From positions 2,479,001 through 2,543,000 of the forward strand of contig CP032507.1 in assembly GCA_008375315.1 (NCBI GenBank): a DNA stretch of 64,000 nt. The letters are read 5' to 3'. Below are positions 2,606-34,664 of the stretch, in pieces. The notes under the pieces were generated by a model, which saw nothing but the letters and a program-made list of their open reading frames with translations, was not told where the DNA came from and made no database searches. The position numbers and the translations under genes are program-made. This DNA comes from Ectothiorhodospiraceae bacterium BW-2 (GTDB lineage Bacteria > Pseudomonadota > Gammaproteobacteria > Thiohalomonadales > Thiohalomonadaceae). Positions within the stretch are counted from its first letter, which is position 1; each line of letters opens with the position of its first letter.

Positions 2606-2620
2606 ATAGGAAAGAAAAAT

Positions 2621-4700: not shown

Positions 4701-4822
4701 GTGCATGACAAGGCGCTGCATTGCCGCTGGTGAGCTTGGTCGTTAGCAAACGCCTAATGGATAAAGTATGAGGGGTCTATTTACGAATAAGAGTAAAATA
4801 AAAATAGAGGTTGAGAGTGATT

Positions 4823-4867
4823 ATGAGTAGTATCTTGAAAAATATTTATGCGACTCTACCTCGATAA
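4823..4867 (+). CDS. 14-codon ORF overlapping the PIN gene start
   Basis: ATG at 4823 encodes MSSILKNIYATLPR and stops inside the next gene. It could be a leader that couples translation to the PIN ORF, which lacks a Shine-Dalgarno, or the stub of a deleted antitoxin. The evidence is position only. Confidence 0.2.
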   Translation: MSSILKNIYATLPR

Positions 4868-5111
4868 CTGCTGTCTGAATCGCCCTTTTGACGATCAATC
4901 CAATTTGCGGATTCATCTGGAATCTGAGGCGATTAAAACGATACTGAAACAGTGTGATACCGGTGACTGGCAGCTATTGGTCAGTGATGTGCTGCTGTTT
5001 GAAATTGCCAAAACACCGGATCAGGAGAAACGACAAAAACTATCTGCACTGATTGCGATTCCCCATCAAACTATTGCCCTAACAACCGACATTAACGAGG
5101 TACTGCAATGA
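4848..5111 (+). pseudogene. Truncated PIN-domain (VapC-like) toxin
   Basis: 87 residues beginning MRLYLDNCCLNRPFDDQSN, the typical start of a subgroup of PIN-domain proteins of about 140-155 residues. The first catalytic Asp (Asp6) is present. The protein ends at about the middle of the fold (TDINEVLQ), so the later acidic residues (the usual DALH and TTDD segments) are absent. The stop overlaps the ATG of the next gene (ATGA at 5108-5111). I infer a deletion or decay product, unlikely to be an active RNase. No ribosome-binding site is visible ahead of the ATG. Confidence 0.6.
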
Positions 5112-5326
5112 AAAATGAACCCTATCAAACCGATGCACAACTCCACCAGCAGGTATTTCAATTGTTAAGCAAACAGTTAGGTGCCGCTAACTTTATCCGC
5201 TTTATCCAGCATTACGAACAAGGTAACGGCGATTACACCAAGGATCGCGAAAGCTGGCAGGCAGGTTACACGGTTGATTCACTTGCCGACGAAATCATGC
5301 GGTGGAAAGAGCAGAATCAGGGATAA
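5108..5326 (+). CDS. Antitoxin-like small protein of a PIN toxin pair
   Basis: 72 residues; start overlaps the end of the PIN fragment by four bases (ATGA). The segment FIRFIQHYEQGNGDYTKDRESW resembles small proteins I have seen encoded beside PIN-domain toxins of this subgroup, where it is presumed to be the antitoxin. No DNA-binding motif is recognisable. With the toxin truncated it may be a relic. Function is inferred from context only. Confidence 0.5.
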   Translation: MKNEPYQTDAQLHQQVFQLLSKQLGAANFIRFIQHYEQGNGDYTKDRESWQAGYTVDSLADEIMRWKEQNQG

Positions 5327-5649
5327 ATTGACCCCTCCCGCATAATCTTCCTGATACTCTCCTCCGATAATTTCCTAAACTCGCCTGAACGGGCAATCTT
5401 CCCCGCAATCCATTTACCCGGTTTATTGGGATTTAACTATAGGGAGCTGACGAAGAGATGAACAGGGATGACTATACCCCTCCCCCCAACCCTCTCCCAC
5501 TGGGAGAGGGAGATTAAGGAGGGAGAGTGAACGGCTATGTACCCAGACCCACTAAAAACCCAATAGCCCCAAATTTTAGCTTGCCCCCTCCCAAGTCATT
5601 GGCTAGACTACCGCCTTATTTCCCACCACTGAAAGAGAGCTTAATCCCG
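5327..5649. other. Intergenic region upstream of locus A giant gene
   Basis: About 320 bases without a supported gene. It holds a C-rich inverted repeat around 5482-5510 (CCCTCTCCCA facing TGGGAGAGGG) of the kind often dispersed in genomes. The 30-base segment 5539-5568 is shared with the array. The frame upstream of the chosen ATG (5527-5649) is open, but its proline-rich product does not look like a protein start. Confidence 0.5.
5539..5568 (+). repeat. 30-base segment shared with the array units
   Basis: Identical over 30 bases to 18668-18697 and the equivalent place in the other ten chimeric units, where it lies 15 bases after the kinase-end relic. It marks the right edge of the putative island. 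Confidence 0.85.
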
Positions 5650-14895: not shown

Positions 14896-14902
14896 TACTC
14901 GG

Positions 14903-16863: not shown

Positions 16864-17068
16864 TTTTGATTTTTTATTTTTTATCCTTTGCTACTGCTGT
16901 GGCGATGGGGGTATGGTTGGGCGGTTTTTCTCGTCTCCTTGCTCATGCCTATACTGAAAAGAGCGCTACTAACCTCTCGCCCCTCTTTGGCCTCATTGAG
17001 TAGGGGCGAGTTTCAAACCCGCCCTGACACGCCGTTAGTTACCGAAAATCGTTTGGGCATTAGAAATA
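16864..17068. other. Intergenic region between DGR and array
   Basis: Begins with a T-rich run like that after VR1. Around 17003-17060 it has a diverged version of the palindromic block found upstream of every Rpn gene (GGGGCGAGTTT facing AAACCCGCCC, then the ACGCCGTTAGTTACC segment). No gene supported. Confidence 0.6.
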
Positions 17069-17240
17069 GTGTCATCCCGACGAATCAACGAATCGCTCCA
17101 AACCCGAGTATAAAGCTATAAAGCTATGGCAATGCAATGATTGGGAACAGGTTATCTGCATTGTCGGGCTGGTTTCGTAGAGACTGGTTTCAGGTTTCGT
17201 GGCCATGACCGCCTAAAAAGCACGGTTTGAATCACGCTCC

Positions 17241-18224
17241 TTACAACTTTAGTCTCTTTTTTAACTCCGCTAACTCAGCTAAAGCCTGCTCCCGCTCGGC
17301 TTGAGCCTGCTCTCGCTCGGCTTGAGCCCTTAATTCGCGCTCTATTGCCTGCTCCCGCTCGGCTTGAGCCCTTAATTCGCGCTCTATTGCCTGATCCCGC
17401 TCGGCTTGAGCCAGCTCCTGCGCACTTTTAGCTTGTTGTAGTTCCTGCTCCATCATATCGTGCTCATGCAGAATGGTTAAGTGCTCCCGCTGTGCATCAA
17501 GTCGGGAGAGGTAGAGATAACGAGCCTGTTTGTTAGCCGAAAATGTTCTGAGGGTATGCTGTGCCTGTCTCATCTCTTTGGTTCTCATCCATTGGGGTAA
17601 ATTATTGCTATCAAGCCGATGTGCTTCCATAAAAAAGCGGATCCAGCGCTGGGCTTCGCTGGATACTATATCGTCTTTAAACTCAAAACGGTGCAGTTCG
17701 CAGATCGTGATACCGCCACACCGGTCACTTATCGCTCTGCCCGACTCATCAAGCAGAGCATAGTGTCGTAGTGGTGGAGGTGGTTGGCTCTTAGTTTGAG
17801 TCGCTGTCTTTGCGGCTTGTTGGGCCGCATTGAGCCGTTTATGTCCAAACGACTCGGTTAACAGCCAGATGGAGTAAACGGGTTGTAGTTCATCGTAGTT
17901 CATCCCCTCTTCTAGCTGCTCCTGATAGAGGTGGCACCAACTATAGACTATACGCTCTGGCAGCGAGGTGTAATTTTTACGCTGAATCTCTAACTGAAAC
18001 TGGCGGCCACGGCTATCTTCGGCTCTGATATCGACAATATGGAGCTTGTCAGTCTCATAATCTTTACTGCTGTAGGGGTTAAGGATAGTCACTTTAACCA
18101 GCGGGTAGCGCAGCTTATCCTCCAGCATGGCATTAAGAAAGTGGAGCAGCAGATGACGCCGGCTGCGCCGCCCTAATATCGCCTTAAAGACGCAATCTAC
18201 TTTGGGGTCGATGTTGTATATCAT
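17241..18224 (-). CDS. Rpn-family PD-(D/E)XK nuclease, array copy 1
   Basis: 327 residues. The N-terminal part (1-125) is the PDDEXK_2 'Rpn / putative transposase' fold: NIDPKVDCVFKAILG at the start, LLHFLNAMLED, then Asp65 in HIVDIRAEDSRGR and Glu79-x-Gln81 in FQLEIQ as the active site. Rpn proteins are Mg-dependent DNA nucleases that raise RecA-independent recombination in E. coli. The middle (126-255) is family-typical. From about 255 on the chain is a highly charged coiled coil built of 7-residue units (AQAEREQ, AIERELR) ending LAELKKRLKL. In known rpn genes a small protein made from the C-terminal part can restrain the nuclease; no internal start was proven here. The gene diverges from a truncated copy of the locus B gene. 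Confidence 0.88.
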   Translation of the reverse strand: MIYNIDPKVDCVFKAILGRRSRRHLLLHFLNAMLEDKLRYPLVKVTILNPYSSKDYETDKLHIVDIRAEDSRGRQFQLEIQRKNYTSLPERIVYSWCHLYQEQLEEGMNYDELQPVYSIWLLTESFGHKRLNAAQQAAKTATQTKSQPPPPLRHYALLDESGRAISDRCGGITICELHRFEFKDDIVSSEAQRWIRFFMEAHRLDSNNLPQWMRTKEMRQAQHTLRTFSANKQARYLYLSRLDAQREHLTILHEHDMMEQELQQAKSAQELAQAERDQAIERELRAQAEREQAIERELRAQAEREQAQAEREQALAELAELKKRLKL

Positions 18225-18463
18225 GGGTTGATAATAGGCCGTTGGGGAGGTGGGTGCAAGATGGAATTGGGAAAAAATATCCCGCTGTACAAGCCAGTAG
18301 GGGCGGGTTTTAAACCCGCCCTGACACGCCGTTAATTACCGAAAATCGTTTGGGCAGGGCAGACACTACCAATTTACCAATGTTAAAAATAACGGTTGCC
18401 GCTCATTGCTTTCATCAATTACACCCAGTAAGTTTTTAACTTATACCAAAGGCCACTCTCGTA
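18225..18463. promoter_or_regulatory. Divergent intergenic spacer, unit 1 (repeated in all units)
   Basis: 239 bases between the Rpn start and the locus B gene start. It holds a perfect 21-base palindrome at 18301-18321 (GGGCGGGTTT, one T, AAACCCGCCC), and AAAGG as a weak Shine-Dalgarno 11 bases before ATG 18464. Divergent promoters must lie here, but I could not fix -10/-35 boxes. Confidence 0.5.
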
Positions 18464-18760
18464 ATGAATTTTCGCCATAATCTGAGTATATTAAACGCTT
18501 TTCTTCTTTGTTTTGCTTTTTTAAGTCAATCGTTTAGCGCTCAAACGCTACAGTTGCAAAATGGTTGGAATCTGGTGATGACTATATTGCCAAGCCGATT
18601 TCGGGTCAAAATCTGCAACGGCTATTGTCGCGCTGGGCAGACACCCTCTCCTAGCGGGGAAGCGGTCGTACCCAGACCCACTAAAAACCCAATAGCCTCA
18701 AATAATAGTGTCATCCCGACGAATCAACGAATCGCTCCAAACCCGAGTATAAAGCTATAA
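18464..18760 (+). pseudogene. Chimeric fragment: giant-gene start plus kinase relic, unit 1
   Basis: Codons 1-38 (signal peptide MNFRHNLSILNAFLLCFAFL to NGWNLV) are identical to the locus B giant gene. From 18577 the sequence is the kinase 3' end read out of frame, then a short tail to 18760. If translated it would give an exported 98-residue peptide, but nothing shows it is functional. Confidence 0.8.
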
Positions 18761-18879
18761 AGCTATGGCAATGCAATGATTGGGAACAGGTTATCTGCAT
18801 TGTCGGGCTGGTTTCGTAGAGACTGGTTTCAGGTTTCGTGGCCATGACCGCCTAAAAAGCACGGTTTGAATCACGCTCC

Positions 18880-19884
18880 TTACAACTTTAGTCTCTTTTT
18901 TAACTCCGCTAACTCAGCTAAAGCCTGCTCCCGCTCGGCTTGAGCCTGCTCTCGCTCGGCTTGAGCCCTTAATTCGCGCTCTATTGCCTGCTCCCGCTCG
19001 GCTTGAGCCAGCTCTCGCTCGGCTTGAGCCCTTAATTCGCGCTCTATTGCCTGATCCCGCTCGGCTTGAGCCAGCTCCTGCGCACTTTTAGCTTGTTGTA
19101 GCTCCTGCTCCATCATATCGTGCTCATGCAGAATGGTTAAGTGCTCCCGCTGTGCATCAAGTCGGGAGAGGTAGAGATAACGAGCCTGTTTGTTAGCCGA
19201 AAATGTTCTGAGGGTATGCTGTGCCTGTCTCATCTCTTTGGTTCTCATCCATTGGGGTAAATTATTGCTATCAAGCCGATGCGCTTCCATAAAAAAGCGG
19301 ATCCAGCGCTGGGCTTCGCTGGATACTATATCGTCTTTAAACTCAAAACGGTGCAGTTCGCAGATCGTGATACCGCCACACCGGTCACTTATCGCTCTGC
19401 CCGACTCATCAAGCAGAGCATAGTGTCGTAGTGGTGGAGGTGGTTGGCTCTTAGTTTGAGTCGCTGTCTTTGCGGCTTGTTGGGCCGCATTGAGCCGTTT
19501 ATGTCCAAACGACTCGGTTAACAGCCAGATGGAGTAAACGGGTTGTAGTTCATCGTAGTTCATCCCCTCTTCTAGCTGCTCCTGATAGAGGTGGCACCAA
19601 CTATAGACTATACGCTCTGGCAGCGAGGTGTAATTTTTACGCTGAATCTCTAACTGAAACTGGCGGCCACGGCTATCTTCGGCTCTGATATCGACAATAT
19701 GGAGCTTGTCAGTCTCATAATCTTTACTGCTGTAGGGGTTAAGGATAGTCACTTTAACCAGCGGGTAGCGCAGCTTATCCTCCAGCATGGCATTAAGAAA
19801 GTGGAGCAGCAGATGACGCCGGCTGCGCCGCCCTAATATCGCCTTAAAGACGCAATCTACTTTGGGGTCGATGTTGTATATCAT
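18880..19884 (-). CDS. Rpn-family nuclease, array copy 2
   Basis: 334 residues; identical in the nuclease part to copy 1 with one more 7-residue tail unit (an AQAEREL unit inserted). Active-site residues Asp65, Glu79 and Gln81 are intact. Confidence 0.87.
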   Translation of the reverse strand: MIYNIDPKVDCVFKAILGRRSRRHLLLHFLNAMLEDKLRYPLVKVTILNPYSSKDYETDKLHIVDIRAEDSRGRQFQLEIQRKNYTSLPERIVYSWCHLYQEQLEEGMNYDELQPVYSIWLLTESFGHKRLNAAQQAAKTATQTKSQPPPPLRHYALLDESGRAISDRCGGITICELHRFEFKDDIVSSEAQRWIRFFMEAHRLDSNNLPQWMRTKEMRQAQHTLRTFSANKQARYLYLSRLDAQREHLTILHEHDMMEQELQQAKSAQELAQAERDQAIERELRAQAERELAQAEREQAIERELRAQAEREQAQAEREQALAELAELKKRLKL

Positions 19885-20123
19885 GGGTTGATAATAGGCC
19901 GTTGGGGAGGTGGGTGCAAGATGGAATTGGGAAAAAATATCCCGCTGTACAAGCCAGTAGGGGCGGGTTTTAAACCCGCCCTGACACGCCGTTAATTACC
20001 GAAAATCGTTTGGGCAGGGCAGACACTACCAATTTACCAATGTTAAAAATAACGGTTGCCGCTCATTGCTTTCATCAATTACACCCAGTAAGTTTTTAAC
20101 TTATACCAAAGGCCACTCTCGTA

Positions 20124-20420
20124 ATGAATTTTCGCCATAATCTGAGTATATTAAACGCTTTTCTTCTTTGTTTTGCTTTTTTAAGTCAATCGTTTAGCGC
20201 TCAAACGCTACAGTTGCAAAATGGTTGGAATCTGGTGATGACTATATTGCCAAGCCGATTTCGGGTCAAAATCTGCAACGGCTATTGTCGCGCTGGGCAG
20301 ACACCCTCTCCTAGCGGGGAAGCGGTCGTACCCAGACCCACTAAAAACCCAATAGCCTCAAATAATAGTGTCATCCCGACGAATCAACGAATCGCTCCAA
20401 ACCCGAGTATAAAGCTATAA
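20124..20420 (+). pseudogene. Chimeric giant-gene/kinase fragment, unit 2
   Basis: Same 98-codon chimera as at 18464, with the long spacer form (ACTCTCGTAATG) before the start. Confidence 0.78.
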
Positions 20421-20539
20421 AGCTATGGCAATGCAATGATTGGGAACAGGTTATCTGCATTGTCGGGCTGGTTTCGTAGAGACTGGTTTCAGGTTTCGTG
20501 GCCATGACCGCCTAAAAAGCACGGTTTGAATCACGCTCC

Positions 20540-21607
20540 TTACAACTTTAGTCTCTTTTTTAACTCCGCTAACTCAGCTAAAGCCTGCTCCCGCTCGGCT
20601 TGAGCCTGCTCTCGCTCGGCTTGAGCCTGCTCTCGCTCGGCTTGAGCCCTTAATTCGCGCTCTATTGCCTGCTCCCGCTCGGCTTGAGCCCTTAATTCGC
20701 GCTCTATTGCCTGCTCCCGCTCGGCTTGAGCCAGCTCTCGCTCGGCTTGAGCCCTTAATTCGCGCTCTATTGCCTGATCCCGCTCGGCTTGAGCCAGCTC
20801 CTGCGCACTTTTAGCTTGTTGTAGCTCCTGCTCCATCATATCGTGCTCATGCAGAATGGTTAAGTGCTCCCGCTGTGCATCAAGTCGGGAGAGGTAGAGA
20901 TAACGAGCCTGTTTGTTAGCCGAAAATGTTCTGAGGGTATGCTGTGCCTGTCTCATCTCTTTGGTTCTCATCCATTGGGGTAAATTATTGCTATCAAGCC
21001 GATGCGCTTCCATAAAAAAGCGGATCCAGCGCTGGGCTTCGCTGGATACTATATCGTCTTTAAACTCAAAACGGTGCAGTTCGCAGATCGTGATACCGCC
21101 ACACCGGTCACTTATCGCTCTGCCCGACTCATCAAGCAGAGCATAGTGTCGTAGTGGTGGAGGTGGTTGGCTCTTAGTTTGAGTCGCTGTCTTTGCGGCT
21201 TGTTGGGCCGCATTGAGCCGTTTATGTCCAAACGACTCGGTTAACAGCCAGATGGAGTAAACGGGTTGTAGTTCATCGTAGTTCATCCCCTCTTCTAGCT
21301 GCTCCTGATAGAGGTGGCACCAACTATAGACTATACGCTCTGGCAGCGAGGTGTAATTTTTACGCTGAATCTCTAACTGAAACTGGCGGCCACGGCTATC
21401 TTCGGCTCTGATATCGACAATATGGAGCTTGTCAGTCTCATAATCTTTACTGCTGTAGGGGTTAAGGATAGTCACTTTAACCAGCGGGTAGCGCAGCTTA
21501 TCCTCCAGCATGGCATTAAGAAAGTGGAGCAGCAGATGACGCCGGCTGCGCCGCCCTAATATCGCCTTAAAGACGCAATCTACTTTGGGGTCGATGTTGT
21601 ATATCAT
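20540..21607 (-). CDS. Rpn-family nuclease, array copy 3
   Basis: 355 residues, one of the longest copies: the tail has four more 7-residue units than copy 1. Nuclease core unchanged. Confidence 0.87.
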   Translation of the reverse strand: MIYNIDPKVDCVFKAILGRRSRRHLLLHFLNAMLEDKLRYPLVKVTILNPYSSKDYETDKLHIVDIRAEDSRGRQFQLEIQRKNYTSLPERIVYSWCHLYQEQLEEGMNYDELQPVYSIWLLTESFGHKRLNAAQQAAKTATQTKSQPPPPLRHYALLDESGRAISDRCGGITICELHRFEFKDDIVSSEAQRWIRFFMEAHRLDSNNLPQWMRTKEMRQAQHTLRTFSANKQARYLYLSRLDAQREHLTILHEHDMMEQELQQAKSAQELAQAERDQAIERELRAQAERELAQAEREQAIERELRAQAEREQAIERELRAQAEREQAQAEREQAQAEREQALAELAELKKRLKL

Positions 21608-21846
21608 GGGTTGATAATAGGCCGTTGGGGAGGTGGGTGCAAGATGGAATTGGGAAAAAATATCCCGCTGTACAAGCCAGTAGGGGCGGGTTTTAAACCC
21701 GCCCTGACACGCCGTTAATTACCGAAAATCGTTTGGGCAGGGCAGACACTACCAATTTACCAATGTTAAAAATAACGGTTGCCGCTCATTGCTTTCATCA
21801 ATTACACCCAGTAAGTTTTTAACTTATACCAAAGGCCACTCTCGTA

Positions 21847-22143
21847 ATGAATTTTCGCCATAATCTGAGTATATTAAACGCTTTTCTTCTTTGTTTTGCT
21901 TTTTTAAGTCAATCGTTTAGCGCTCAAACGCTACAGTTGCAAAATGGTTGGAATCTGGTGATGACTATATTGCCAAGCCGATTTCGGGTCAAAATCTGCA
22001 ACGGCTATTGTCGCGCTGGGCAGACACCCTCTCCTAGCGGGGAAGCGGTCGTACCCAGACCCACTAAAAACCCAATAGCCTCAAATAATAGTGTCATCCC
22101 GACGAATCAACGAATCGCTCCAAACCCGAGTATAAAGCTATAA
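21847..22143 (+). pseudogene. Chimeric giant-gene/kinase fragment, unit 3
   Basis: Same chimera as in unit 1; long spacer form before the ATG. Confidence 0.78.
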
Positions 22144-22262
22144 AGCTATGGCAATGCAATGATTGGGAACAGGTTATCTGCATTGTCGGGCTGGTTTCGT
22201 AGAGACTGGTTTCAGGTTTCGTGGCCATGACCGCCTAAAAAGCACGGTTTGAATCACGCTCC

Positions 22263-23288
22263 TTACAACTTTAGTCTCTTTTTTAACTCCGCTAACTCAG
22301 CTAAAGCCTGCTCCCGCTCGGCTTGAGCCTGCTCCCGCTCGGCTTGAGCCTGCTCTCGCTCGGCTTGAGCCCTTAATTCGCGCTCTATTGCCTGCTCCCG
22401 CTCGGCTTGAGCCAGCTCTCGCTCGGCTTGAGCCCTTAATTCGCGCTCTATTGCCTGATCCCGCTCGGCTTGAGCCAGCTCCTGCGCACTTTTAGCTTGT
22501 TGTAGCTCCTGCTCCATCATATCGTGCTCATGCAGAATGGTTAAGTGCTCCCGCTGTGCATCAAGTCGGGAGAGGTAGAGATAACGAGCCTGTTTGTTAG
22601 CCGAAAATGTTCTGAGGGTATGCTGTGCCTGTCTCATCTCTTTGGTTCTCATCCATTGGGGTAAATTATTGCTATCAAGCCGATGCGCTTCCATAAAAAA
22701 GCGGATCCAGCGCTGGGCTTCGCTGGATACTATATCGTCTTTAAACTCAAAACGGTGCAGTTCGCAGATCGTGATACCGCCACACCGGTCACTTATCGCT
22801 CTGCCCGACTCATCAAGCAGAGCATAGTGTCGTAGTGGTGGAGGTGGTTGGCTCTTAGTTTGAGTCGCTGTCTTTGCGGCTTGTTGGGCCGCATTGAGCC
22901 GTTTATGTCCAAACGACTCGGTTAACAGCCAGATGGAGTAAACGGGTTGTAGTTCATCGTAGTTCATCCCCTCTTCTAGCTGCTCCTGATAGAGGTGGCA
23001 CCAACTATAGACTATACGCTCTGGCAGCGAGGTGTAATTTTTACGCTGAATCTCTAACTGAAACTGGCGGCCACGGCTATCTTCGGCTCTGATATCGACA
23101 ATATGGAGCTTGTCAGTCTCATAATCTTTACTGCTGTAGGGGTTAAGGATAGTCACTTTAACCAGCGGGTAGCGCAGCTTATCCTCCAGCATGGCATTAA
23201 GAAAGTGGAGCAGCAGATGACGCCGGCTGCGCCGCCCTAATATCGCCTTAAAGACGCAATCTACTTTGGGGTCGATGTTGTATATCAT
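22263..23288 (-). CDS. Rpn-family nuclease, array copy 4
   Basis: 341 residues; tail two units longer than copy 1, ending with three successive AQAEREQ units. Core intact. Confidence 0.87.
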   Translation of the reverse strand: MIYNIDPKVDCVFKAILGRRSRRHLLLHFLNAMLEDKLRYPLVKVTILNPYSSKDYETDKLHIVDIRAEDSRGRQFQLEIQRKNYTSLPERIVYSWCHLYQEQLEEGMNYDELQPVYSIWLLTESFGHKRLNAAQQAAKTATQTKSQPPPPLRHYALLDESGRAISDRCGGITICELHRFEFKDDIVSSEAQRWIRFFMEAHRLDSNNLPQWMRTKEMRQAQHTLRTFSANKQARYLYLSRLDAQREHLTILHEHDMMEQELQQAKSAQELAQAERDQAIERELRAQAERELAQAEREQAIERELRAQAEREQAQAEREQAQAEREQALAELAELKKRLKL

Positions 23289-23525
23289 GGGTTGATAATA
23301 GGCCGTTGGGGAGGTGGGTGCAAGATGGAATTGGGAAAAAATATCCCGCTGTACAAGCCAGTAGGGGCGGGTTTTAAACCCGCCCTGACACGCCGTTAAT
23401 TACCGAAAATCGTTTGGGCAGGGCAGACACTACCAATTTACCAATGTTAAAAATAACGGTTGCCGCTCATTGCTTTCATCAATTACATCCAGTAAGTTTT
23501 TAACTTATACCAAAGGCCACTCGTA

Positions 23526-23816
23526 ATGAATTTTCGCCATAATCTGAGTATATTAAACGCTTTTCTTCTTTGTTTTGCTTTTTTAAGTCAATCGTTTAGC
23601 GCTCAAACGCTACAGTTGCAAAATGGTTGGAATCTGGTGATGACTATATTGCCAAGCCGATTTCGGGTCAAAATCTGCAACGGCTATTGTCGCGCTGGGC
23701 AGACACCCTCTCCTAGCGGGGAAGCGGTCGTACCCAGACCCACTAAAAACCCAATAGCCTCAAATAATAGTCAATACCTTCGCCAAAAAAATGAGGAGGG
23801 CGAGGGGCTAAGGTGA
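23526..23816 (+). pseudogene. Chimeric fragment, unit 4, cut by IS701-like element
   Basis: Short spacer form (ACTCGTAATG) before the start. The last codons are replaced because an IS enters at 23771, so the frame ends inside the element at 23816. Confidence 0.78.
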
Positions 23817-25476
23817 TAAGCTTAAGTGACAAAACAACAAGCGAACACCGGAGCCCCAGCCCATGCCAGACATTATGCTACTTTTAACCTGTTTAAGCTA
23901 CGAGTTAGGAAAAACGGCCTTGTTCATCTCTTCGTCAGCTCCCCTCCACCCCTCCCCGCTGGGGGAGGCGAAAAGGGAAGGCGAGGGAGTTATGCCTCAT
24001 GAGGGTGACGAGACGATGAACAATACCCGGGTTTCGTAGGGGCGGGTTTGAAACCCGCCCCTACACGCCGTGGATTACTGGAAAAAAGGGTCGTCTAAAA
24101 AGCACGGTTTGAATCACACTTGGTTGGATGGGCATAATAGAAATCGCAAGGGTGACGAAACGATGAACAAGGCCGGAAAAACAAATCAGCGTCGTTTAGT
24201 TCGAATCGCTGAAGCGATGCTGTCGATGACAGGCCGAGTCACCATGTTGGGACTTTCCCGCTGGAGCGGTCGAGGGGGGAGTTATCGTACACTTCAGCGT
24301 TTTTTTCATAGCACGATTAATTGGCCACAACTGAATTGGTCGCTGTTTCAGAGCCATCTTTTAGGAGAGGATACCGAATGGGTGATGGCTGCGGATGAGG
24401 TTGTGGTCACGAAATCGGGTAAAAAAACATATGGCTTGGAACGATTTTTTTCTTCAATATATGGCAAGACGGTACCCGGATTGTGCTTTTTCAGTCTATC
24501 ACTTATTAATGTAAAGCGACGCAGTTCGCACCCGATGCTGCTAGAGCCGATTATAAAAGAGGCAGCGGCGAGCTGTCCTAAAGGAACGAGTAGCGTTAAA
24601 GAAAAAAAGAGCGGTCGTCCGAAAGGGAGTAGCAATCGAAACCTTAAAGAAGTCGAGTTATCTCCTTATTTGCAGTTTGCAAAAGGATTGATAAATCAGG
24701 TATTAACGCGGATCAATGGCCGGATTTTAATCCGCTATTTTGTTTTCGACGGCGCATTTGGACACAATAACGCCCTGCAAATGGTTCAACAATTGAAATT
24801 ACACCTCATCTCAAAGCTACGCTGCAATTCAGCACTTTATCTCCCCTATGACAGTCCCTACAGTGGCCGAGGCCGACGACGCAAATAGGGTGAACGGCTT
24901 GATTATCGCAACCTGCCACAAGCGTATCTCAAAAACACATCGACTGAAGACCATATTCGAACGGACATCTATCAGATGCCTGTTTTCCACAAGAAATTTG
25001 CCGATTTACTGAATGTTGTAATCATTGTCAAAACGAATCAAATGAGTGGTGCACACTCTCATGTCATTCTCTTCAGCAGTGATGTGGAATTAGGCTATGA
25101 GAAGTTGGTTGACTACTACCGACTCAGATTCCAAATTGAGTTCAATTTTAGGGATGCCAAGCAGTACTGGGGACTGGAAGATTTTATGGCCGTCAAACAA
25201 ACACCAGTTTACAACAGTGCTAATCTTGCGATGCTGATGGTTAACCTCTCTTATATATTACGCCAGTCCATGCGTGAAGAGTGTCCAGACTTCAGTGTGA
25301 ACGATCTCAAAGCGCAGTTCAGAGGGCTCCAATATGTCTTGGAAGCTTTAAAATTGCTTCCGGAAATGCCGGATGCGGTTATTATTGACCAAATTATTCA
25401 GCAGGCGGCTAATAGAGGCCGTATTAATCAGATACCTAAGGCTGCCTAGCATGAATAATTTTGGCGAAGGTATTGA
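23771..25476 (+). mobile_element. IS701-like insertion sequence
   Basis: Terminal inverted repeats TCAATACCTTCGCCAAAA at 23771 and its complement ending at 25476; 4-base target duplication ATAG (23767-23770 and 25477-25480), which fits IS701-type elements. 1,706 bases. The first 390 bases are non-coding and contain host-like sequence: a palindromic GGGCGGGTTTGAAACCCGCCC-type block at 24040-24060, and 24095-24117 identical to the non-coding part of the array units. Confidence 0.85.
24163..25449 (+). pseudogene. IS701/IS4-type DDE transposase with amber stop
   Basis: From ATG 24163 the frame runs to 24885, meets a TAG at 24886-24888 (codon 242) and continues in the same frame to 25449, so a single nonsense change splits a 428-codon gene. 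DDE-type segments: VMAADEVVVTKSGKKTYG (first Asp), RYFVFDGAFGH (second Asp), and DYYRLRFQIEFNFRDAKQYW (Glu region) after the stop. Without the C-terminal part the enzyme should be inactive, unless the stop is suppressed or is a sequencing error. Confidence 0.82.
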
Positions 25477-25651
25477 ATAGTGTCATCCCGACGAATCAAC
25501 GAATCGCTCCAAACCCGAGTATAAAGCTATAAAGCTATGGCAATGCAATGATTGGGAACAGGTTATCTGCATTGTCGGGCTGGTTTCGTAGAGACTGGTT
25601 TCAGGTTTCGTGGCCATGACCGCCTAAAAAGCACGGTTTGAATCACGCTCC

Positions 25652-26661
25652 TTACAACTTTAGTCTCTTTTTTAACTCCGCTAACTCAGCTAAAGCCTGC
25701 TCCCGCTCGGCTTGAGCCTGCTCTCGCTCGGCTTGAGCCCTTAATTCGCGCTCTATTGCCTGCTCCCGCTCGGCTTGAGCCCTTAATTCGCGCTCTATTG
25801 CCTGCTCCCGCTCGGCTTGAGCCAGCTCTCGCTCGGCTTGAGCCCTTAATTCGCGCTCTATTGCCTGATCCCGCTCGGCTTGAGCCAGCTCCTGCGCACT
25901 TTTAGCTTGTTGTAGCTCCTGCTCCATCATATCGTGCTCATGCAGAATGGTTAAGTGCTCCCGCTGTGCATCAAGTCGGGAGAGGTAGAGATAACGAGCC
26001 TGTTTGTTAGCCGAAAATGTTCTGAGGGTATGCTGTGCCTGTCTCATCTCTTTGGTTCTCATCCATTGGGGTAAATTATTGCTATCAAGCCGATGCGCTT
26101 CCATAAAAAAGCGGATCCAGCGCTGGGCTTCGCTGGATACTATATCGTCTTTAAACTCAAAACGGTGCAGTTCGCAGATCGTGATACCGCCACACCGGTC
26201 ACTTATCGCTCTGCCCGACTCATCAAGCAGAGCATAGTGTCGTAGTGGTGGAGGTGGTTGGCTCTTAGTTTGAGTCGCTGTCTTTGCGGCTTGTTGGGCC
26301 GCATTGAGCCGTTTATGTCCAAACGACTCGGTTAACAGCCAGATGGAGTAAACGGGTTGTAGTTCATCGTAGTTCATCCCCTCTTCTAGCTGCTCCTGAT
26401 AGAGGTGGCACCAACTATAGACTATACGCTCTGGCAGCGAGGTGTAATTTTTACGCTGAATCTCTAACTGAAACTGGCGGCCACGGCTATCTTCGGCTCT
26501 GATATCGACAATATGGAGCTTGTCAGTCTCATAATCTTTACTGCTGTAGGGGTTAAGGATAGTCACTTTAACCAGCGGGTAGCGCAGCTTATCCTCCAGC
26601 ATGGCATTAAGAAAGTGGAGCAGCAGATGACGCCGGCTGCGCCGCCCTAATATCGCCTTAA
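25652..26661 (-). pseudogene. Rpn-family nuclease, array copy 5, split by IS
   Basis: Would be 348 residues. A 1.7 kb IS inserted at 26662 separates the first 12-15 codons (28358-28402) from the rest. The longest remaining frame starts at the internal Met33 (26602), which keeps Asp65, Glu79 and Gln81 but lacks the first helix. Probably inactive or altered. Confidence 0.82.
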
Positions 26662-28357
26662 CAGCAATTCAGGGGCAGCTCCATAACCGACTAACTTCAT
26701 AAACTTACATTGGCAAAAAAATTATTTTTTCCAGCAAAAATAGCCCATATATCTCCAATTTTGAGAGGTAACCGCATGTCAACTGCACGAAAATCAGCTT
26801 CGAACCAATCCGTCCGGTCTAAAAAAAGAATCGGAATAAACGTAAATTACAGCGCAAAGATGTCGTCTATCAACTCCACCTGACCATCACACACTTCTTT
26901 CCTGCTCTCTTTGAGCAGATGAGAGAGCTGGATGAGTGCCGGACATCTACTAATTATGATTTGGCGGCTCTTATTACGGCCTGCATTGCCATGTTTCTCT
27001 TTAAAGCCGGTTCTCGTAATGAAATGAATAATCTGCGCGAAGAGAAACGCTTTCGCAAAAACTACCAGCGGTTGTTCAAAATGCCGCTACCTCATATGGA
27101 TACCGTCGATAATGTCATGCGACAACTCACGGAGGATCAACTGCAAAAACTGACTCAATCCATGGTTAGGGCGCTGTTGAAAAAGAAGATATTCCACAAT
27201 CAACGGCTGTTTGGTGAATGGTTTGTCATTGCGGTGGATGCGAGCGGGATTCATAGTTTTACAGAGTGTCCCCATGAACAGGCGCTGCACAAAGACTACA
27301 GCAGCGGTAAAAGTAGCTGGCATAACATGGTTTTAGAGGCCAAACTGATTACCGCTAACGGCTTCGCCATCTCCATTGCCACAGAGTGGCTGGAAAACCC
27401 CGAAGAGGGCAACTATGACAAACAGGATTGTGAGCGTAAGGCATTCAAACGCCTAGCAAAAAAGTTGAAATCGGCGTTTCCGCGTCTACCCATCTGTCTG
27501 GTTGCCGATGGACTCTATCCTTATCAGGGATTCTTCGAAATTTGCTCAGAGTATGGTTGGGGCTGGATAGTCACCTTCAAGGATGGCAATCTGCCATCTG
27601 TTTGGGAAGAGGTTAAATCCTTGTGCCAGTTAACATCCGGCAATCAACGAAAAATCATTCTACGGCAACAGGATAATGTCATTGAGCAAAACTATACATG
27701 GATTAACGATATTGACTATCATGGCGTGAAACTACACTGGCTGGAATGCATAGAGACAACCACCGACAAAGAGGGGCAGATAATTGAAAATCGGTTCGTT
27801 CACATTAGCTCCTATCCCATCAACTGGAATACGGCACCGGAATTGAGCCGTACCGGACGCTTACGCTGGAAAATAGAGAACGAAGGCTTTAATACCCAAA
27901 AAAATCATGGATATGCATTAGAGCACAAATTTTCACGGGTGAGTTATCTGGCGACCAAGAATTACTACCAGTGCTTGCAAATAGCTCACATCATCAATCA
28001 GTTACTGGTATTTAGCAAGACATTTCAAAGTGTTATGCAGGGGAAGATGACCTTAAAGCGCATCTGGGGAAAGATGATTGCCGTTATGACTGAACGAAAA
28101 CTGTCGGTAACGAAATTAGCCCAACTCACCGGGCGCCCCTGCCAGATTCGACTCATCAATTAAAAGACGATGGAGATCCCCGCTCCGAAATTCGGGATAA
28201 CCCTCATTACACACTGGAGACAAGCTCACTCAACACCGCTGTACAATTTGAAATAGTTGACTTTTCAACAAGGAAATGTTGAGAAGAGGGGGGGTATTGT
28301 CGCCAAGAAAGCAAGGCTATGTAGTGATGCTGGTTTGGCGGTGACTCTGAATTGCTG
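26662..28357 (+). mobile_element. 1.7 kb DDE insertion sequence, copy 1
   Basis: Ends CAGCAATTCAG and its complement CTGAATTGCTG; 8-base target duplication CGCCTTAA at 26654-26661 and 28358-28365. Inserted in the Rpn copy 5 gene. One transposase gene; identical relatives at 30250, 38823 and 63699. Confidence 0.88.
26919..28163 (+). CDS. DDE transposase of the 1.7 kb IS, copy 1
   Basis: 414 residues in this frame. DDE candidates: VIAVDASGIHSF (first Asp), ICLVADGLYPYQG (second Asp) and LRWKIENEGFN (Glu). The fold resembles IS4-superfamily / unclassified (ISNCY-type) transposases. Protein-like sequence continues upstream of the first ATG (QRKDVVYQLHLTITHFFPAL). It would join an ATG at 26776, which has a good GAGAGG Shine-Dalgarno, through a -1 shift at the seven-A run 26821-26827. 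So the real product is probably about 460 residues made by frameshifting. Confidence 0.82.
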   Translation: MRELDECRTSTNYDLAALITACIAMFLFKAGSRNEMNNLREEKRFRKNYQRLFKMPLPHMDTVDNVMRQLTEDQLQKLTQSMVRALLKKKIFHNQRLFGEWFVIAVDASGIHSFTECPHEQALHKDYSSGKSSWHNMVLEAKLITANGFAISIATEWLENPEEGNYDKQDCERKAFKRLAKKLKSAFPRLPICLVADGLYPYQGFFEICSEYGWGWIVTFKDGNLPSVWEEVKSLCQLTSGNQRKIILRQQDNVIEQNYTWINDIDYHGVKLHWLECIETTTDKEGQIIENRFVHISSYPINWNTAPELSRTGRLRWKIENEGFNTQKNHGYALEHKFSRVSYLATKNYYQCLQIAHIINQLLVFSKTFQSVMQGKMTLKRIWGKMIAVMTERKLSVTKLAQLTGRPCQIRLIN

Positions 28358-28641
28358 CGCCTTAAAGACGCAATCTACTTTGGGGTCGATGTTGTATATC
28401 ATGGGTTGATAATAGGCCGTTGGGGAGGTGGGTGCAAGATGGAATTGGGAAAAAATATCCCGCTGTACAAGCCAGTAGGGGCGGGTTTTAAACCCGCCCT
28501 GACACGCCGTTAATTACCGAAAATCGTTTGGGCAGGGCAGACACTACCAATTTACCAATGTTAAAAATAACGGTTGCCGCTCATTGCTTTCATCAATTAC
28601 ACCCAGTAAGTTTTTAACTTATACCAAAGGCCACTCTCGTA

Positions 28642-28938
28642 ATGAATTTTCGCCATAATCTGAGTATATTAAACGCTTTTCTTCTTTGTTTTGCTTTTTT
28701 AAGTCAATCGTTTAGCGCTCAAACGCTACAGTTGCAAAATGGTTGGAATCTGGTGATGACTATATTGCCAAGCCGATTTCGGGTCAAAATCTGCAACGGC
28801 TATTGTCGCGCTGGGCAGACACCCTCTCCTAGCGGGGAAGCGGTCGTACCCAGACCCACTAAAAACCCAATAGCCTCAAATAATAGTGTCATCCCGACGA
28901 ATCAACGAATCGCTCCAAACCCGAGTATAAAGCTATAA
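28642..28938 (+). pseudogene. Chimeric giant-gene/kinase fragment, unit 5
   Basis: Same 98-codon chimera; long spacer form before the ATG. Confidence 0.78.
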
Positions 28939-29057
28939 AGCTATGGCAATGCAATGATTGGGAACAGGTTATCTGCATTGTCGGGCTGGTTTCGTAGAGA
29001 CTGGTTTCAGGTTTCGTGGCCATGACCGCCTAAAAAGCACGGTTTGAATCACGCTCC

Positions 29058-30020
29058 TTACAACTTTAGTCTCTTTTTTAACTCCGCTAACTCAGCTAAA
29101 GCCTGCTCCCGCTCGGCTTGAGCCAGCTCTCGCTCGGCTTGAGCCCTTAATTCGCGCTCTATTGCCTGATCCCGCTCGGCTTGAGCCTGATCCCGCTCGG
29201 CTTGAGCCAGCTCCTGCGCACTTTTAGCTTGTTGTAGTTCCTGCTCCATCATATCGTGCTCATGCAGAATGGTTAAGTGCTCCCGCTGTGCATCAAGTCG
29301 GGAGAGGTAGAGATAACGAGCCTGTTTGTTAGCCGAAAATGTTCTGAGGGTATGCTGTGCCTGTCTCATCTCTTTGGTTCTCATCCATTGGGGTAAATTA
29401 TTGCTATCAAGCCGATGCGCTTCCATAAAAAAGCGGATCCAGCGCTGGGCTTCGCTGGATACTATATCGTCTTTAAACTCAAAACGGTGCAGTTCGCAGA
29501 TCGTGATACCGCCACACCGGTCACTTATCGCTCTGCCCGACTCATCAAGCAGAGCATAGTGTCGTAGTGGTGGAGGTGGTTGGCTCTTAGTTTGAGTCGC
29601 TGTCTTTGCGGCTTGTTGGGCCGCATTGAGCCGTTTATGTCCAAACGACTCGGTTAACAGCCAGATGGAGTAAACGGGTTGTAGTTCATCGTAGTTCATC
29701 CCCTCTTCTAGCTGCTCCTGATAGAGGTGGCACCAACTATAGACTATACGCTCTGGCAGCGAGGTGTAATTTTTACGCTGAATCTCTAACTGAAACTGGC
29801 GGCCACGGCTATCTTCGGCTCTGATATCGACAATATGGAGCTTGTCAGTCTCATAATCTTTACTGCTGTAGGGGTTAAGGATAGTCACTTTAACCAGCGG
29901 GTAGCGCAGCTTATCCTCCAGCATGGCATTAAGAAAGTGGAGCAGCAGATGACGCCGGCTGCGCCGCCCTAATATCGCCTTAAAGACGCAATCTACTTTG
30001 GGGTCGATGTTGTATATCAT
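29058..30020 (-). CDS. Rpn-family nuclease, array copy 6
   Basis: 320 residues, the shortest uninterrupted copy; the tail has one unit fewer than copy 1 and a doubled AQAERDQ unit. Core residues intact. Confidence 0.87.
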   Translation of the reverse strand: MIYNIDPKVDCVFKAILGRRSRRHLLLHFLNAMLEDKLRYPLVKVTILNPYSSKDYETDKLHIVDIRAEDSRGRQFQLEIQRKNYTSLPERIVYSWCHLYQEQLEEGMNYDELQPVYSIWLLTESFGHKRLNAAQQAAKTATQTKSQPPPPLRHYALLDESGRAISDRCGGITICELHRFEFKDDIVSSEAQRWIRFFMEAHRLDSNNLPQWMRTKEMRQAQHTLRTFSANKQARYLYLSRLDAQREHLTILHEHDMMEQELQQAKSAQELAQAERDQAQAERDQAIERELRAQAERELAQAEREQALAELAELKKRLKL

Positions 30021-30249
30021 GGGTTGATAATAGGCCGTTGGGGAGGTGGGTGCAAGATGGAATTGGGAAAAAATATCCCGCTGTACAAGCCAGTAGGGGC
30101 GGGTTTTAAACCCGCCCTGACACGCCGTTAATTACCGAAAATCGTTTGGGCAGGGCAGACACTACCAATTTACCAATGTTAAAAATAACGGTTGCCGCTC
30201 ATTGCTTTCATCAATTACACCCAGTAAGTTTTTAACTTATACCAAAGGC

Positions 30250-31945
30250 CAGCAATTCAGGGGCAGCTCCATAACCGACTAACTTCATAAACTTACATTG
30301 GCAAAAAAATTATTTTTTCCAGCAAAAATAGCCCATATATCTCCAATTTTGAGAGGTAACCGCATGTCAACTGCACGAAAATCAGCTTCGAACCAATCCG
30401 TCCGGTCTAAAAAAAGAATCGGAATAAACGTAAATTACAGCGCAAAGATGTCGTCTATCAACTCCACCTGACCATCACACACTTCTTTCCTGCTCTCTTT
30501 GAGCAGATGAGAGAGCTGGATGAGTGCCGGACATCTACTAATTATGATTTGGCGGCTCTTATTACGGCCTGCATTGCCATGTTTCTCTTTAAAGCCGGTT
30601 CTCGTAATGAAATGAATAATCTGCGCGAAGAGAAACGCTTTCGCAAAAACTACCAGCGGTTGTTCAAAATGCCGCTACCTCATATGGATACCGTCGATAA
30701 TGTCATGCGACAACTCACGGAGGATCAACTGCAAAAACTGACTCAATCCATGGTTAGGGCGCTGTTGAAAAAGAAGATATTCCACAATCAACGGCTGTTT
30801 GGTGAATGGTTTGTCATTGCGGTGGATGCGAGCGGGATTCATAGTTTTACAGAGTGTCCCCATGAACAGGCGCTGCACAAAGACTACAGCAGCGGTAAAA
30901 GTAGCTGGCATAACATGGTTTTAGAGGCCAAACTGATTACCGCTAACGGCTTCGCCATCTCCATTGCCACAGAGTGGCTGGAAAACCCCGAAGAGGGCAA
31001 CTATGACAAACAGGATTGTGAGCGTAAGGCATTCAAACGCCTAGCAAAAAAGTTGAAATCGGCGTTTCCGCGTCTACCCATCTGTCTGGTTGCCGATGGA
31101 CTCTATCCTTATCAGGGATTCTTCGAAATTTGCTCAGAGTATGGTTGGGGCTGGATAGTCACCTTCAAGGATGGCAATCTGCCATCTGTTTGGGAAGAGG
31201 TTAAATCCTTGTGCCAGTTAACATCCGGCAATCAACGAAAAATCATTCTACGGCAACAGGATAATGTCATTGAGCAAAACTATACATGGATTAACGATAT
31301 TGACTATCATGGCGTGAAACTACACTGGCTGGAATGCATAGAGACAACCACCGACAAAGAGGGGCAGATAATTGAAAATCGGTTCGTTCACATTAGCTCC
31401 TATCCCATCAACTGGAATACGGCACCGGAATTGAGCCGTACCGGACGCTTACGCTGGAAAATAGAGAACGAAGGCTTTAATACCCAAAAAAATCATGGAT
31501 ATGCATTAGAGCACAAATTTTCACGGGTGAGTTATCTGGCGACCAAGAATTACTACCAGTGCTTGCAAATAGCTCACATCATCAATCAGTTACTGGTATT
31601 TAGCAAGACATTTCAAAGTGTTATGCAGGGGAAGATGACCTTAAAGCGCATCTGGGGAAAGATGATTGCCGTTATGACTGAACGAAAACTGTCGGTAACG
31701 AAATTAGCCCAACTCACCGGGCGCCCCTGCCAGATTCGACTCATCAATTAAAAGACGATGGAGATCCCCGCTCCGAAATTCGGGATAACCCTCATTACAC
31801 ACTGGAGACAAGCTCACTCAACACCGCTGTACAATTTGAAATAGTTGACTTTTCAACAAGGAAATGTTGAGAAGAGGGGGGGTATTGTCGCCAAGAAAGC
31901 AAGGCTATGTAGTGATGCTGGTTTGGCGGTGACTCTGAATTGCTG
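30250..31945 (+). mobile_element. 1.7 kb DDE insertion sequence, copy 2
   Basis: Same ends as the copy at 26662; flanked by ACCAAAGGC (30241-30249 and 31946-31954), a 9-base duplication. It separates the Rpn copy 6 upstream region from the start of the chimeric ORF at 31963. Confidence 0.88.
30507..31751 (+). CDS. DDE transposase of the 1.7 kb IS, copy 2
   Basis: Identical protein to the one at 26919, including the upstream ATG (30364) and the seven-A run before the main frame. Confidence 0.82.
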   Translation: MRELDECRTSTNYDLAALITACIAMFLFKAGSRNEMNNLREEKRFRKNYQRLFKMPLPHMDTVDNVMRQLTEDQLQKLTQSMVRALLKKKIFHNQRLFGEWFVIAVDASGIHSFTECPHEQALHKDYSSGKSSWHNMVLEAKLITANGFAISIATEWLENPEEGNYDKQDCERKAFKRLAKKLKSAFPRLPICLVADGLYPYQGFFEICSEYGWGWIVTFKDGNLPSVWEEVKSLCQLTSGNQRKIILRQQDNVIEQNYTWINDIDYHGVKLHWLECIETTTDKEGQIIENRFVHISSYPINWNTAPELSRTGRLRWKIENEGFNTQKNHGYALEHKFSRVSYLATKNYYQCLQIAHIINQLLVFSKTFQSVMQGKMTLKRIWGKMIAVMTERKLSVTKLAQLTGRPCQIRLIN

Positions 31946-31962
31946 ACCAAAGGCCACTCGTA

Positions 31963-32259
31963 ATGAATTTTCGCCATAATCTGAGTATATTAAACGCTTT
32001 TCTTCTTTGTTTTGCTTTTTTAAGTCAATCGTTTAGCGCTCAAACGCTACAGTTGCAAAATGGTTGGAATCTGGTGATGACTATATTGCCAAGCCGATTT
32101 CGGGTCAAAATCTGCAACGGCTATTGTCGCGCTGGGCAGACACCCTCTCCTAGCGGGGAAGCGGTCGTACCCAGACCCACTAAAAACCCAATAGCCTCAA
32201 ATAATAGTGTCATCCCGACGAATCAACGAATCGCTCCAAACCCGAGTATAAAGCTATAA
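31963..32259 (+). pseudogene. Chimeric giant-gene/kinase fragment, unit 6
   Basis: Same chimera, short spacer form. Its normal upstream region is displaced by the IS ending 17 bases before the ATG. Confidence 0.77.
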
Positions 32260-32378
32260 AGCTATGGCAATGCAATGATTGGGAACAGGTTATCTGCATT
32301 GTCGGGCTGGTTTCGTAGAGACTGGTTTCAGGTTTCGTGGCCATGACCGCCTAAAAAGCACGGTTTGAATCACGCTCC

Positions 32379-32857
32379 TTACAACTTTAGTCTCTTTTTT
32401 AACTCCGCTAACTCAGCTAAAGCCTGCTCCCGCTCGGCTTGAGCCAGCTCTCGCTCGGCTTGAGCCCTTAATTCGCGCTCTATTGCCTGATCCCGCTCGG
32501 CTTGAGCCAGCTCCTGCGCACTTTTAGCTTGTTGTAGCTCCTGCTCCATCATATCGTGCTCATGCAGAATGGTTAAGTGCTCCCGCTGTGCATCAAGTCG
32601 GGAGAGGTAGAGATAACGAGCCTGTTTGTTAGCCGAAAATGTTCTGAGGGTATGCTGTGCCTGTCTCATCTCTTTGGTTCTCATCCATTGGGGTAAATTA
32701 TTGCTATCAAGCCGATGTGCTTCCATAAAAAAGCGGATCCAGCGCTGGGCTTCGCTGGATACTATATCGTCTTTAAACTCAAAACGGTGCAGTTCGCAGA
32801 TCGTGATACCGCCACACCGGTCACTTATCGCTCTGCCCGACTCATCAAGCAGAGCAT
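32379..32857 (-). pseudogene. Rpn copy 7, C-terminal half (split by IS3-like element)
   Basis: Carries the middle region and tail from ALLDESGRAISD on; tail shortest of all (the whole gene would give 313 residues). The nuclease half lies beyond the insertion at 34745-35211. Confidence 0.8.
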
Positions 32858-33215
32858 CGGAAGCTGTCAAGTAATTTGAGACCAGTTGTTAAAAAAATAA
32901 AGCTCTAAATCTAGCCGGTGATTGCCACTGCCCTCACCGGCAAATTTCGCCTATGTTGAGTCATGACGCAACAAGGAGCGAACATGACCCTCATGGCCCT
33001 TTGCCGCAAGAGCCAAGCCCTTCAGCAAGGGGGAGCTGCAAGGCGAACTGCAACCCCTAATCTAGGAACCTCCCTCCTGCACCGCGTTACCCACAGCCCG
33101 CCCCCCTACGATAATAAGGGGGTCTCCGGGGGGCGGGCTATGGATAACGCTCTGTCATTCAGCCACCACAACCGGCTAAAGCCATCGACGATAGACCCAC
33201 TAGCGGCACCGTCAC

Positions 33216-34263: not shown

Positions 34264-34664
34264 AAGCTTATCTCTGTGTTCATCTGCTCCAATAAGCTGA
34301 AGGCTTTTTTTTGGAGCGCAATCACCCCTTCGGTCTGCTGTAACCGTTGGCTAAGACGCTGAATTTCCTTCTTTAAACGCTCTATCTCCTTATCTCGCTT
34401 GTCTAGGCTCGGTTTGCGACCACTCTGTTTCCCTTTCAGGCCAGCCTGCCCCTGTGCTTGCAGTTGTCGGCGCCATTTGGTCAGATGGGAGCTGTAGATC
34501 TGCTCTTTGCGCAGCAGCTCGCCTAGCTGACCCGGCTCCTTGCACTGCTCTGCTTCTGCTAGGATCCGAAGCTTCTCTTCCTCACTAAATTTGCGGTAGG
34601 AGCGCTTCTCTTCATCGGGGTCGGTAACCTCGTTGGAGGGTAAAACGGTAGTATCTTTGGGCAT
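34260..34664 (-). CDS. IS3-family orfA (HTH) protein
   Basis: 134 residues from ATG 34664, chosen for the GAGGAG Shine-Dalgarno 10 bases upstream. KFSEEEKLRILAEAEQC and a helix-turn-helix, then a leucine-zipper-like coiled coil (KEIERLKKEIQRLSQRLQQ), as in IS3 orfA proteins that bind the IS ends. Ends in ATGA overlap with orfB, the usual arrangement for coupled or frameshifted orfAB synthesis. Confidence 0.85.
   Translation of the reverse strand: MPKDTTVLPSNEVTDPDEEKRSYRKFSEEEKLRILAEAEQCKEPGQLGELLRKEQIYSSHLTKWRRQLQAQGQAGLKGKQSGRKPSLDKRDKEIERLKKEIQRLSQRLQQTEGVIALQKKAFSLLEQMNTEISL

What the first reader, a model, noticed from the sequence alone, without database searches (positions are those of the whole stretch)
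18464..18760. Array unit is a chimera of three distant segments
Each of eleven units joins the first 38 codons of the locus B giant gene (now starting at 47617), 76 bases of the histidine kinase 3' end (now at 2522-2597) and 30 bases from upstream of the locus A giant gene (now at 5539-5568). The break is clean (CTGGT to GATGACT). The unit therefore records a recombination between locus A and locus B before amplification.
Basis: seen in the sequence. Interest (0 to 1): 0.7.

Follow-up and report, generated by a model that had tools for sequence, protein, structure and literature searches.

The report
Nuclease-gene array preserving a lost junction
A bacterial chromosome carries twelve tandem copies of a DNA-cutting (Rpn-type) gene, and the short seam between copies keeps a piece of the neighbourhood as it looked before later DNA insertions pulled its two halves 3 kb apart.

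Summary
Eleven identical seams join the 5' end of the locus B giant gene to kinase-3'-end and locus-A-upstream sequence. The "three distant segments" reading needs correcting. In today's locus A that stretch is split by a low-GC restriction-modification island plus a MITE. The locus A piece begins at the exact base after the MITE terminus (5538|5539), so the seam holds the MITE's empty site. The kinase frame also closes with a stop at the linker. The array (17065-47729) has 12 units, each an Rpn/PDDEXK nuclease gene plus the B1 promoter region and 38 codons. Nuclease cores are nearly identical, but all 12 C-terminal heptad-repeat tails differ. Simpler rpn arrays lie at 1.18 and 1.45 Mb. rpn arrays formed by tandem duplication are published; this composite seam is a variant. 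Whether it arose by duplication plus deletion, template-switch insertion, or one joint before locus A's cassette arrived is unresolved. No close relative was available.

The parts
17065..47729 (.). Tandem array of 12 units (M module = rpn gene plus flanks; then B1 upstream + first 113 bp of B1; then 127-bp seam, absent after the last unit); IS insertions at the unit 4/5 border and in units 5, 6, 7 and 9
   Evidence: BLAST of one unit on the array region; per-unit alignment and insertion contexts
18464..18760 (+).
18577..18703 (+). 127-bp seam (first of 11): kinase 3' end 76 bp, linker 15 bp giving an in-frame TAG, P36. Others: 20237-20363, 21960-22086, 23639-23765, 28755-28881, 32076-32202, 35564-35690, 37287-37413, 42648-42774, 44371-44497, 46052-46178
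   Evidence: 11 identical copies
2522..2597 (+). Present-day homologue of the kinase part of the seam (3' end of hybrid histidine kinase 830-2605); 2 of 76 differ, both synonymous
2598..5474 (+). Inferred later insertion: Type II RM island (C5 methylase 2621-3802, REase 3783-4700) plus 0.77 kb unidentified, GC 0.39-0.44 against 0.54 and 0.62 on the two sides; absent from all 11 seams
5475..5538 (+). Left-truncated copy of a roughly 92-bp MITE (TIR GTAACCGTTCAC / GTGAACGGTTAC, 8-bp target-site duplication in most copies); its last base is 5538
5539..5574 (+). P36: present-day homologue of the locus A part of the seam; begins with the MITE's predicted 8-bp target GTACCCAG
47429..47729 (+). Right-most copy of the M right end, B1 upstream region and first 113 bp of B1 (ATG 47617), source of the B part of each unit; B1 itself changes frame near 47830
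16999..17064 (+). 61-bp remnant of an M right end plus ATTAG: an older simple M-M junction at the left border of the array, same junction as at 1.18 Mb
46355..47380 (-). rpn gene of the right-most unit (341 aa); 11 other copies, intact or broken, lie at 17241-45699
   Evidence: profile matches shown for the copy 18880-19884

Best explanation
The array is an rpn (Rpn-family PD-(D/E)XK nuclease) gene array made by tandem duplication. Its founding joint fused B1 (after codon 38) to a 127-bp stretch of the kinase-A1 intergenic region, which led back into the left flank of the rpn gene. At that time the kinase ended ...WADTLS-stop and was followed directly by a 13-bp spacer and P36, upstream of A1. 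Later a MITE inserted immediately before P36, and an RM island then replaced the MITE's left half and the old linker in the parental locus. Today's locus A is therefore split while the array keeps the unsplit version. The duplicated unit grew to 12 copies, presumably by homologous exchange between the 1.5-kb repeats, keeping the seams identical, while the 21-bp tail repeats slipped so that every copy now has its own tail. For the founding event I lean slightly to a tandem duplication reaching back into the kinase followed by deletion of the roughly 11.5 kb between P36 and the rpn flank (amplicon remodelling). SHOWN: the sequences, boundaries, empty-site geometry, identity of seams and tail diversity. 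INFERRED: the order of events and the route. Rpn activity as the cause is speculation. The confidence given is for the contiguous-fragment and tandem-duplication core; the lean to duplication plus deletion alone is about 0.45.
For: 11 of 11 seams identical. The MITE family ends GGTTAC in 15 of 15 aligned copies, and at the same register the window copy ends at 5538, one base before P36. Of 13 two-ended copies printed, 8 have perfect 8-bp duplications and one has 7 of 8; the sequence after the window MITE starts GTACCCAG, and the seam has GTACCCAG straight after its linker. The repeat's 63-bp core or a part of it matches at 19 further places. GC is 0.54 in the kinase, 0.39 in the RM genes and 0.62 after 5538. 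The kinase frame in the seam closes ...WADTLS*, against ...WADTLSCV* today. The 15-bp linker has no other exact copy and one 1-mismatch copy in 4.07 Mb. All pieces have the same strand and order as locus A. Both kinase differences are synonymous. Simple M-M joints exist at 1.18 Mb and as a 61-bp remnant at the array's left border. A further rpn array lies at 1.454-1.458 Mb. Tails 12 of 12 distinct.
Against: No relative with the unsplit kinase-P36-A1 order was found (no match longer than 24 bp in the 55 other genomes; no A1 homologue in them). The in-frame stop has roughly a 5% chance of arising by accident. The window MITE lacks its left end and left target copy, so the duplication cannot be checked on both sides in locus A; 4 of 13 two-ended family copies lack a matching 8-bp duplication. 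The seam-to-M joint (P36|AATAGTG) lies 5-6 bp from the older M-M joint; duplication plus deletion does not predict that. Both joints show no overlap in the simplest parse, and the genome has no Ku hit, so the joining route is not identified.
Confidence: 0.75

Rival explanations
1. One-step template switching: during repair of a break at B1 codon 38 the polymerase copied 127 bp of the kinase-A1 intergenic region and then jumped to the rpn flank, giving the tandem duplication with a templated insert at once. Rpn nucleases, which leave 3' hydroxyl ends and raise RecA-independent recombination, could have provoked it.
For: Same contiguous 127-bp insert. Kingston et al. (PMC5350276: abstract, outline and section 30 read) propose template switching for RpnA-stimulated recombination. 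At P36|M an AAAT overlap with a 3-bp AAT repeat can be parsed (own reading). No Ku found.
Against: No experiment. The overlap at B1|kinase is 0 bp.
Confidence: 0.35
2. Single-joint model: the ancestral order was kinase-P36-rpn-B1 with no A cassette between. Only B1|kinase is a new joint; the A cassette (A1, A2, RT, Lcl gene; from 5575 to about 16998) arrived later between P36 and the first rpn unit.
For: Needs only one illegitimate duplication joint. Removing M from the unit leaves a plausible kinase-to-B1 intergenic region of about 150 bp (own reading).
Against: A and B are adjacent, same-strand paralogous cassettes with about 40-60% aa identity over most matched stretches, which suggests old in-situ duplication. 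The A cassette would have to land exactly at P36|M.
Confidence: 0.2
3. One reading: three separate segments (B1 start, kinase end, A1 upstream) were joined by recombination of loci A and B already arranged as today.
For: The present distance of 2.9 kb between kinase piece and P36.
Against: P36 starts exactly at the MITE's end, the low-GC RM island starts at the kinase piece's end, the linker has no source, and the seam contains the MITE's empty site.
Confidence: 0.06
4. The kinase part comes from another kinase paralogue or from a foreign strain's chromosome rather than from this locus.
For: 2 of 76 and 1 of 36 differences from the present copies.
Against: Only one DNA match outside the array in the genome; other kinases at most 48% identical at the protein level. 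Only a conspecific donor is not excluded.
Confidence: 0.08
5. IS- or MITE-mediated amplification, with the seam as a by-product of an element's ends.
For: Five places in the array carry IS insertions; two inverted 196-bp MITE-like copies bound the array at 1.18 Mb.
Against: No IS or TIR at any intact seam; no IS position is shared by two units, so the insertions look later than the amplification.
Confidence: 0.05
6. The chimeric 98-aa ORF (signal-peptide-like start plus out-of-frame kinase sequence) is a new secreted-peptide gene whose dosage is selected.
For: The 297-bp ORF is intact in 10 of 11 copies; the eleventh is cut by an IS.
Against: All copies are identical, so there is no test of selection, and the rpn gene is an ordinary reason for amplification. 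The signal-peptide reading is by eye.
Confidence: 0.05

Closest known systems
rpn gene arrays (COG5464) in the 2023 preprint 'Toxic anti-phage defense proteins inhibited by intragenic antitoxin proteins' (PMC10327210)
   Same: Arrays attributed there to tandem direct duplication of genomic regions, not transposition; a hypervariable repeat region in the C-terminal part of the protein (sections 4 and 11 read).
   Different: Here the unit also captures the promoter region and first 38 codons of a neighbouring giant gene plus a 127-bp fragment from about 11.5 kb away (pre-insertion distance). The tail repeats are 7 aa (21 bp), not 4 aa.
Amplicon remodelling after segmental amplification (E. coli, PMC8763031; passages read)
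   Same: A large duplicated segment later trimmed by deletion; joints with little sequence identity.
   Different: That is an observed laboratory evolution; here it is inferred from one genome.
Templated insertions at rearrangement joints (search listing only)
   Same: A short copied fragment from elsewhere at a duplication joint.
   Different: The 12 listed papers are mostly on human cancer or other eukaryote genomes; not shown to be the route here.
MITE empty sites as markers of the older state (general knowledge, recalled)
   Same: Pre-insertion target sequence identifies the older arrangement.
   Different: Here the empty site survives in a duplicated fragment of the same genome rather than in a relative.

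Membership tests
Rpn nuclease family | Significant match to curated Rpn/PDDEXK_2 profiles | tested here: met
   Copy 18880-19884: PF12784 E 6.9e-37; TIGR01784 72 bits against cut-off 52.1
Rpn nuclease family | Hypervariable repeats in the C-terminal tail | tested here: met
   12 of 12 tails distinct in the array; 21-bp repeats. Repeat unit 7 aa, not the 4 aa reported
Rpn nuclease family | Separately translated small C-terminal protein (RpnS) | tested here: inconclusive
   An in-frame ATGATG begins the tail in 12 of 12 units; no strong Shine-Dalgarno seen by eye in the one printed context
Rpn nuclease family | DNA cleavage / toxicity | not testable with these tools
   needs an assay
rpn array by tandem direct duplication | Direct repeats with identical joints, no TIR/TSD at unit ends | tested here: met
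   (absence of TIR/TSD by reading the joints)
IS-mediated amplification | IS copies at the unit joints | tested here: not met
   10 of 11 seams run unbroken into the next unit; one carries an IS just after it, inserted with its own flanking repeat; IS positions are private to single units
MITE (element at 5475-5538) | Terminal inverted repeats and constant-length target duplication | tested here: met
   For the family: TIR GTAACCGTTCAC/GTGAACGGTTAC, 8-bp duplication perfect in 8 of 13 two-ended copies, 7 of 8 in one, absent in four. The window copy is left-truncated
Ku-dependent end joining as the joining route | Ku gene present | tested here: not met
   0 hits for PF02735 in the genome; among 14 control genomes it rings in Bacillus subtilis
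Amplicon remodelling | Intermediate with the full large duplication | not testable with these tools
   no same-genus genome among the 56 searched

The most novel reading that the evidence does not exclude
The seam is a natural product of Rpn action: the nuclease broke its own neighbourhood, a template-switch repair copied a 127-bp insert and duplicated the gene, and the resulting array diversifies its tail repeats so that one chromosome now holds a repertoire of about a dozen near-identical nucleases with private, possibly mutually incompatible, self-inhibitory tails.
Probability: 0.15. Interest if true: 0.7.

Novelty: new variant of a known kind. Interest (0 to 1): 0.42.

Why it matters
The seam records the order of events: the rpn duplication predates the arrival of the MITE and of the restriction-modification island next door. 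The array shows identical seams beside 12 different tails, so tail slippage is far faster than point mutation. It also gives a defined natural joint against which the published suggestion that Rpn proteins help to generate their own duplications (PMC10327210, passage) can be tested.

Tried and rejected
Literature: 15 papers; 23, 20 listed; 40, 12 listed; 3; 2,053 papers holding at least 2 of 4 terms, 12 listed; none of the listed titles describes a composite rpn seam, and supplements could not be read.

Considered and rejected: three-segment chimera; IS-driven amplification; paralogous kinase source; Ku end joining. Not resolved: duplication plus deletion, template switch, or later arrival of the A cassette. 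Reverse-transcriptase involvement (a DGR lies in locus A) was thought of, but nothing in the sequence speaks for it. Divergence dating was dropped as uninformative: 3 differences in 112 aligned bp.

Full report
OBSERVATION. A BLAST of 18464-18760 against the window gives ten full and one IS-truncated copy, all 100% identical, plus the four partial sources: 47617-47729 (113 bp, no mismatch), 2522-2597 (74 of 76), 5539-5574 (35 of 36) and 17065-17121 (57 of 57). Genome-wide the kinase piece has one match outside the array (E 1.8e-30) and so does the locus A piece (E 3.2e-10).

WHAT THE UNIT IS. The repeat unit is 1.6-1.7 kb, running from 17065 to 18703 in the first copy. It contains an Rpn-family nuclease gene on the minus strand (PF12784; TIGR01784), the region upstream of B1, B1 codons 1-38, and the 127-bp seam. 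There are 12 units with 11 seams; the last unit runs on into B1. Insertion sequences interrupt the array at five places, each private to one unit or unit border. B1 changes frame near 47830 (tblastx offsets; ORFs), so the B locus may be decaying, although single-base assembly errors are not excluded.

ONE FRAGMENT, NOT THREE. In today's locus A the kinase piece and P36 are 2,941 bp apart. That stretch holds a C5 methylase and a Type II restriction enzyme at GC 0.39, 0.77 kb of unidentified DNA at 0.44, and a truncated copy of a dispersed element. The element is a MITE of about 92 bp with inverted ends GTAACCGTTCAC/GTGAACGGTTAC. Of 13 two-ended copies examined, 8 carry a perfect 8-bp target duplication, one 7 of 8, and four do not. 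All 15 aligned copies end GGTTAC; the window copy, in the same register, ends at 5538, and P36 starts at 5539. In the seam the linker runs directly into GTACCCAG, the predicted 8-bp target. The seam therefore looks like the empty site of this MITE, and the linker is what the MITE and island displaced. In addition the kinase frame in the seam ends ...WADTLS* exactly at the linker, while the present kinase ends ...WADTLSCV*, its last codons lying in the low-GC stretch. The linker has no other exact copy in 4.07 Mb. I conclude that kinase end, linker and P36 were contiguous when copied.

HISTORY. A simple rpn array without seam exists at 1.18 Mb (three modules, two of them truncated; junction GTTTGGGC-ATTAG-AAATAGTG), and the same junction survives as a 61-bp remnant at the left border of the window array. 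A third tandem rpn family lies at 1.453-1.458 Mb with four full and two shortened copies. Simple tandem duplication of rpn genes is thus recurrent in this genome, and the composite seam came later at this locus. After the seam formed, the unit was amplified; the seams stayed identical (11 of 11), the rpn modules differ at a handful of sites outside the tail, but the C-terminal tails of 21-bp repeats differ in all 12 units. By ORF length, nine of the twelve rpn genes read intact; units 5 and 7 are cut by IS and unit 9 is frameshifted in its tail.

ROUTE. Two joints bound the 127-bp piece: B1|kinase and P36|M. Neither shows overlap in the simplest parse, and no Ku gene was found. The pieces keep locus A's order and strand, which a duplication of kinase-to-B1 followed by an 11.5-kb deletion would force. 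A one-step template switch would also give this product and fits the model that Kingston et al. proposed for RpnA. A third possibility is that the A cassette was not yet there, so that only B1|kinase is a new joint; the adjacency of two old paralogous cassettes speaks against it. I cannot separate these with one genome.

WHAT IS KNOWN. The 2023 rpn preprint states that rpn arrays appear to arise by tandem direct duplication and that the number of tail repeats varies and affects toxin/antitoxin specificity (sections read; passages). It speculates that RpnL proteins may help to generate the duplications. The present array is a variant of that kind with a captured neighbour-gene start and a copied insert. 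My searches for a description of such a composite seam found none, but beyond three papers only listings were seen, and supplements could not be opened.

Unrecombined junctions in relatives could not be tested, because the 55 other genomes searched are of other genera and hold neither the fragment nor A1.

Noticed in passing
14758-16864: Diversity-generating retroelement: template repeat about 14758-14896 at the start of the RT ORF (14726-16360), with variable repeats at the 3' ends of the giant A2 gene (14079-14217) and of a small Lcl_C gene (16727-16864); 11 of 12 and 12 of 13 mismatches fall on template adenines.
   Followed up: partly
57224-57316 and 57775-57899: The paralogous B targets end in repeats only about 63-65% like the template, with changes not confined to adenines: probably no longer served by this element.
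   Followed up: partly
17241-47380, minus strand: 12 rpn copies with 12 different heptad-repeat tails but nearly identical nuclease cores: slippage diversity inside one array.
   Followed up: partly
L009 4487-4682 and 8223-8418: Two 99.5% identical 196-bp inverted elements (ends CAATACCTTCGCC) bound the three-module rpn array at 1.18 Mb, like a MITE-bounded composite; the same terminal sequence bounds the IS at window 23766-25475.
   Followed up: partly
L060 2208-6860 (G000:C1:1.453-1.458 Mb): Another rpn array with four full and two internally deleted copies, spacing 945-981, 495 and 303 bp; further related repeats follow at 8432-10981.
   Followed up: no
2598-5474: Low-GC Type II restriction-modification island directly after the kinase gene, apparently overwriting its last codons.
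   Followed up: partly
10929-13245: Giant A2 gene holds about 8 copies of a 291-bp repeat (97 aa).
   Followed up: no
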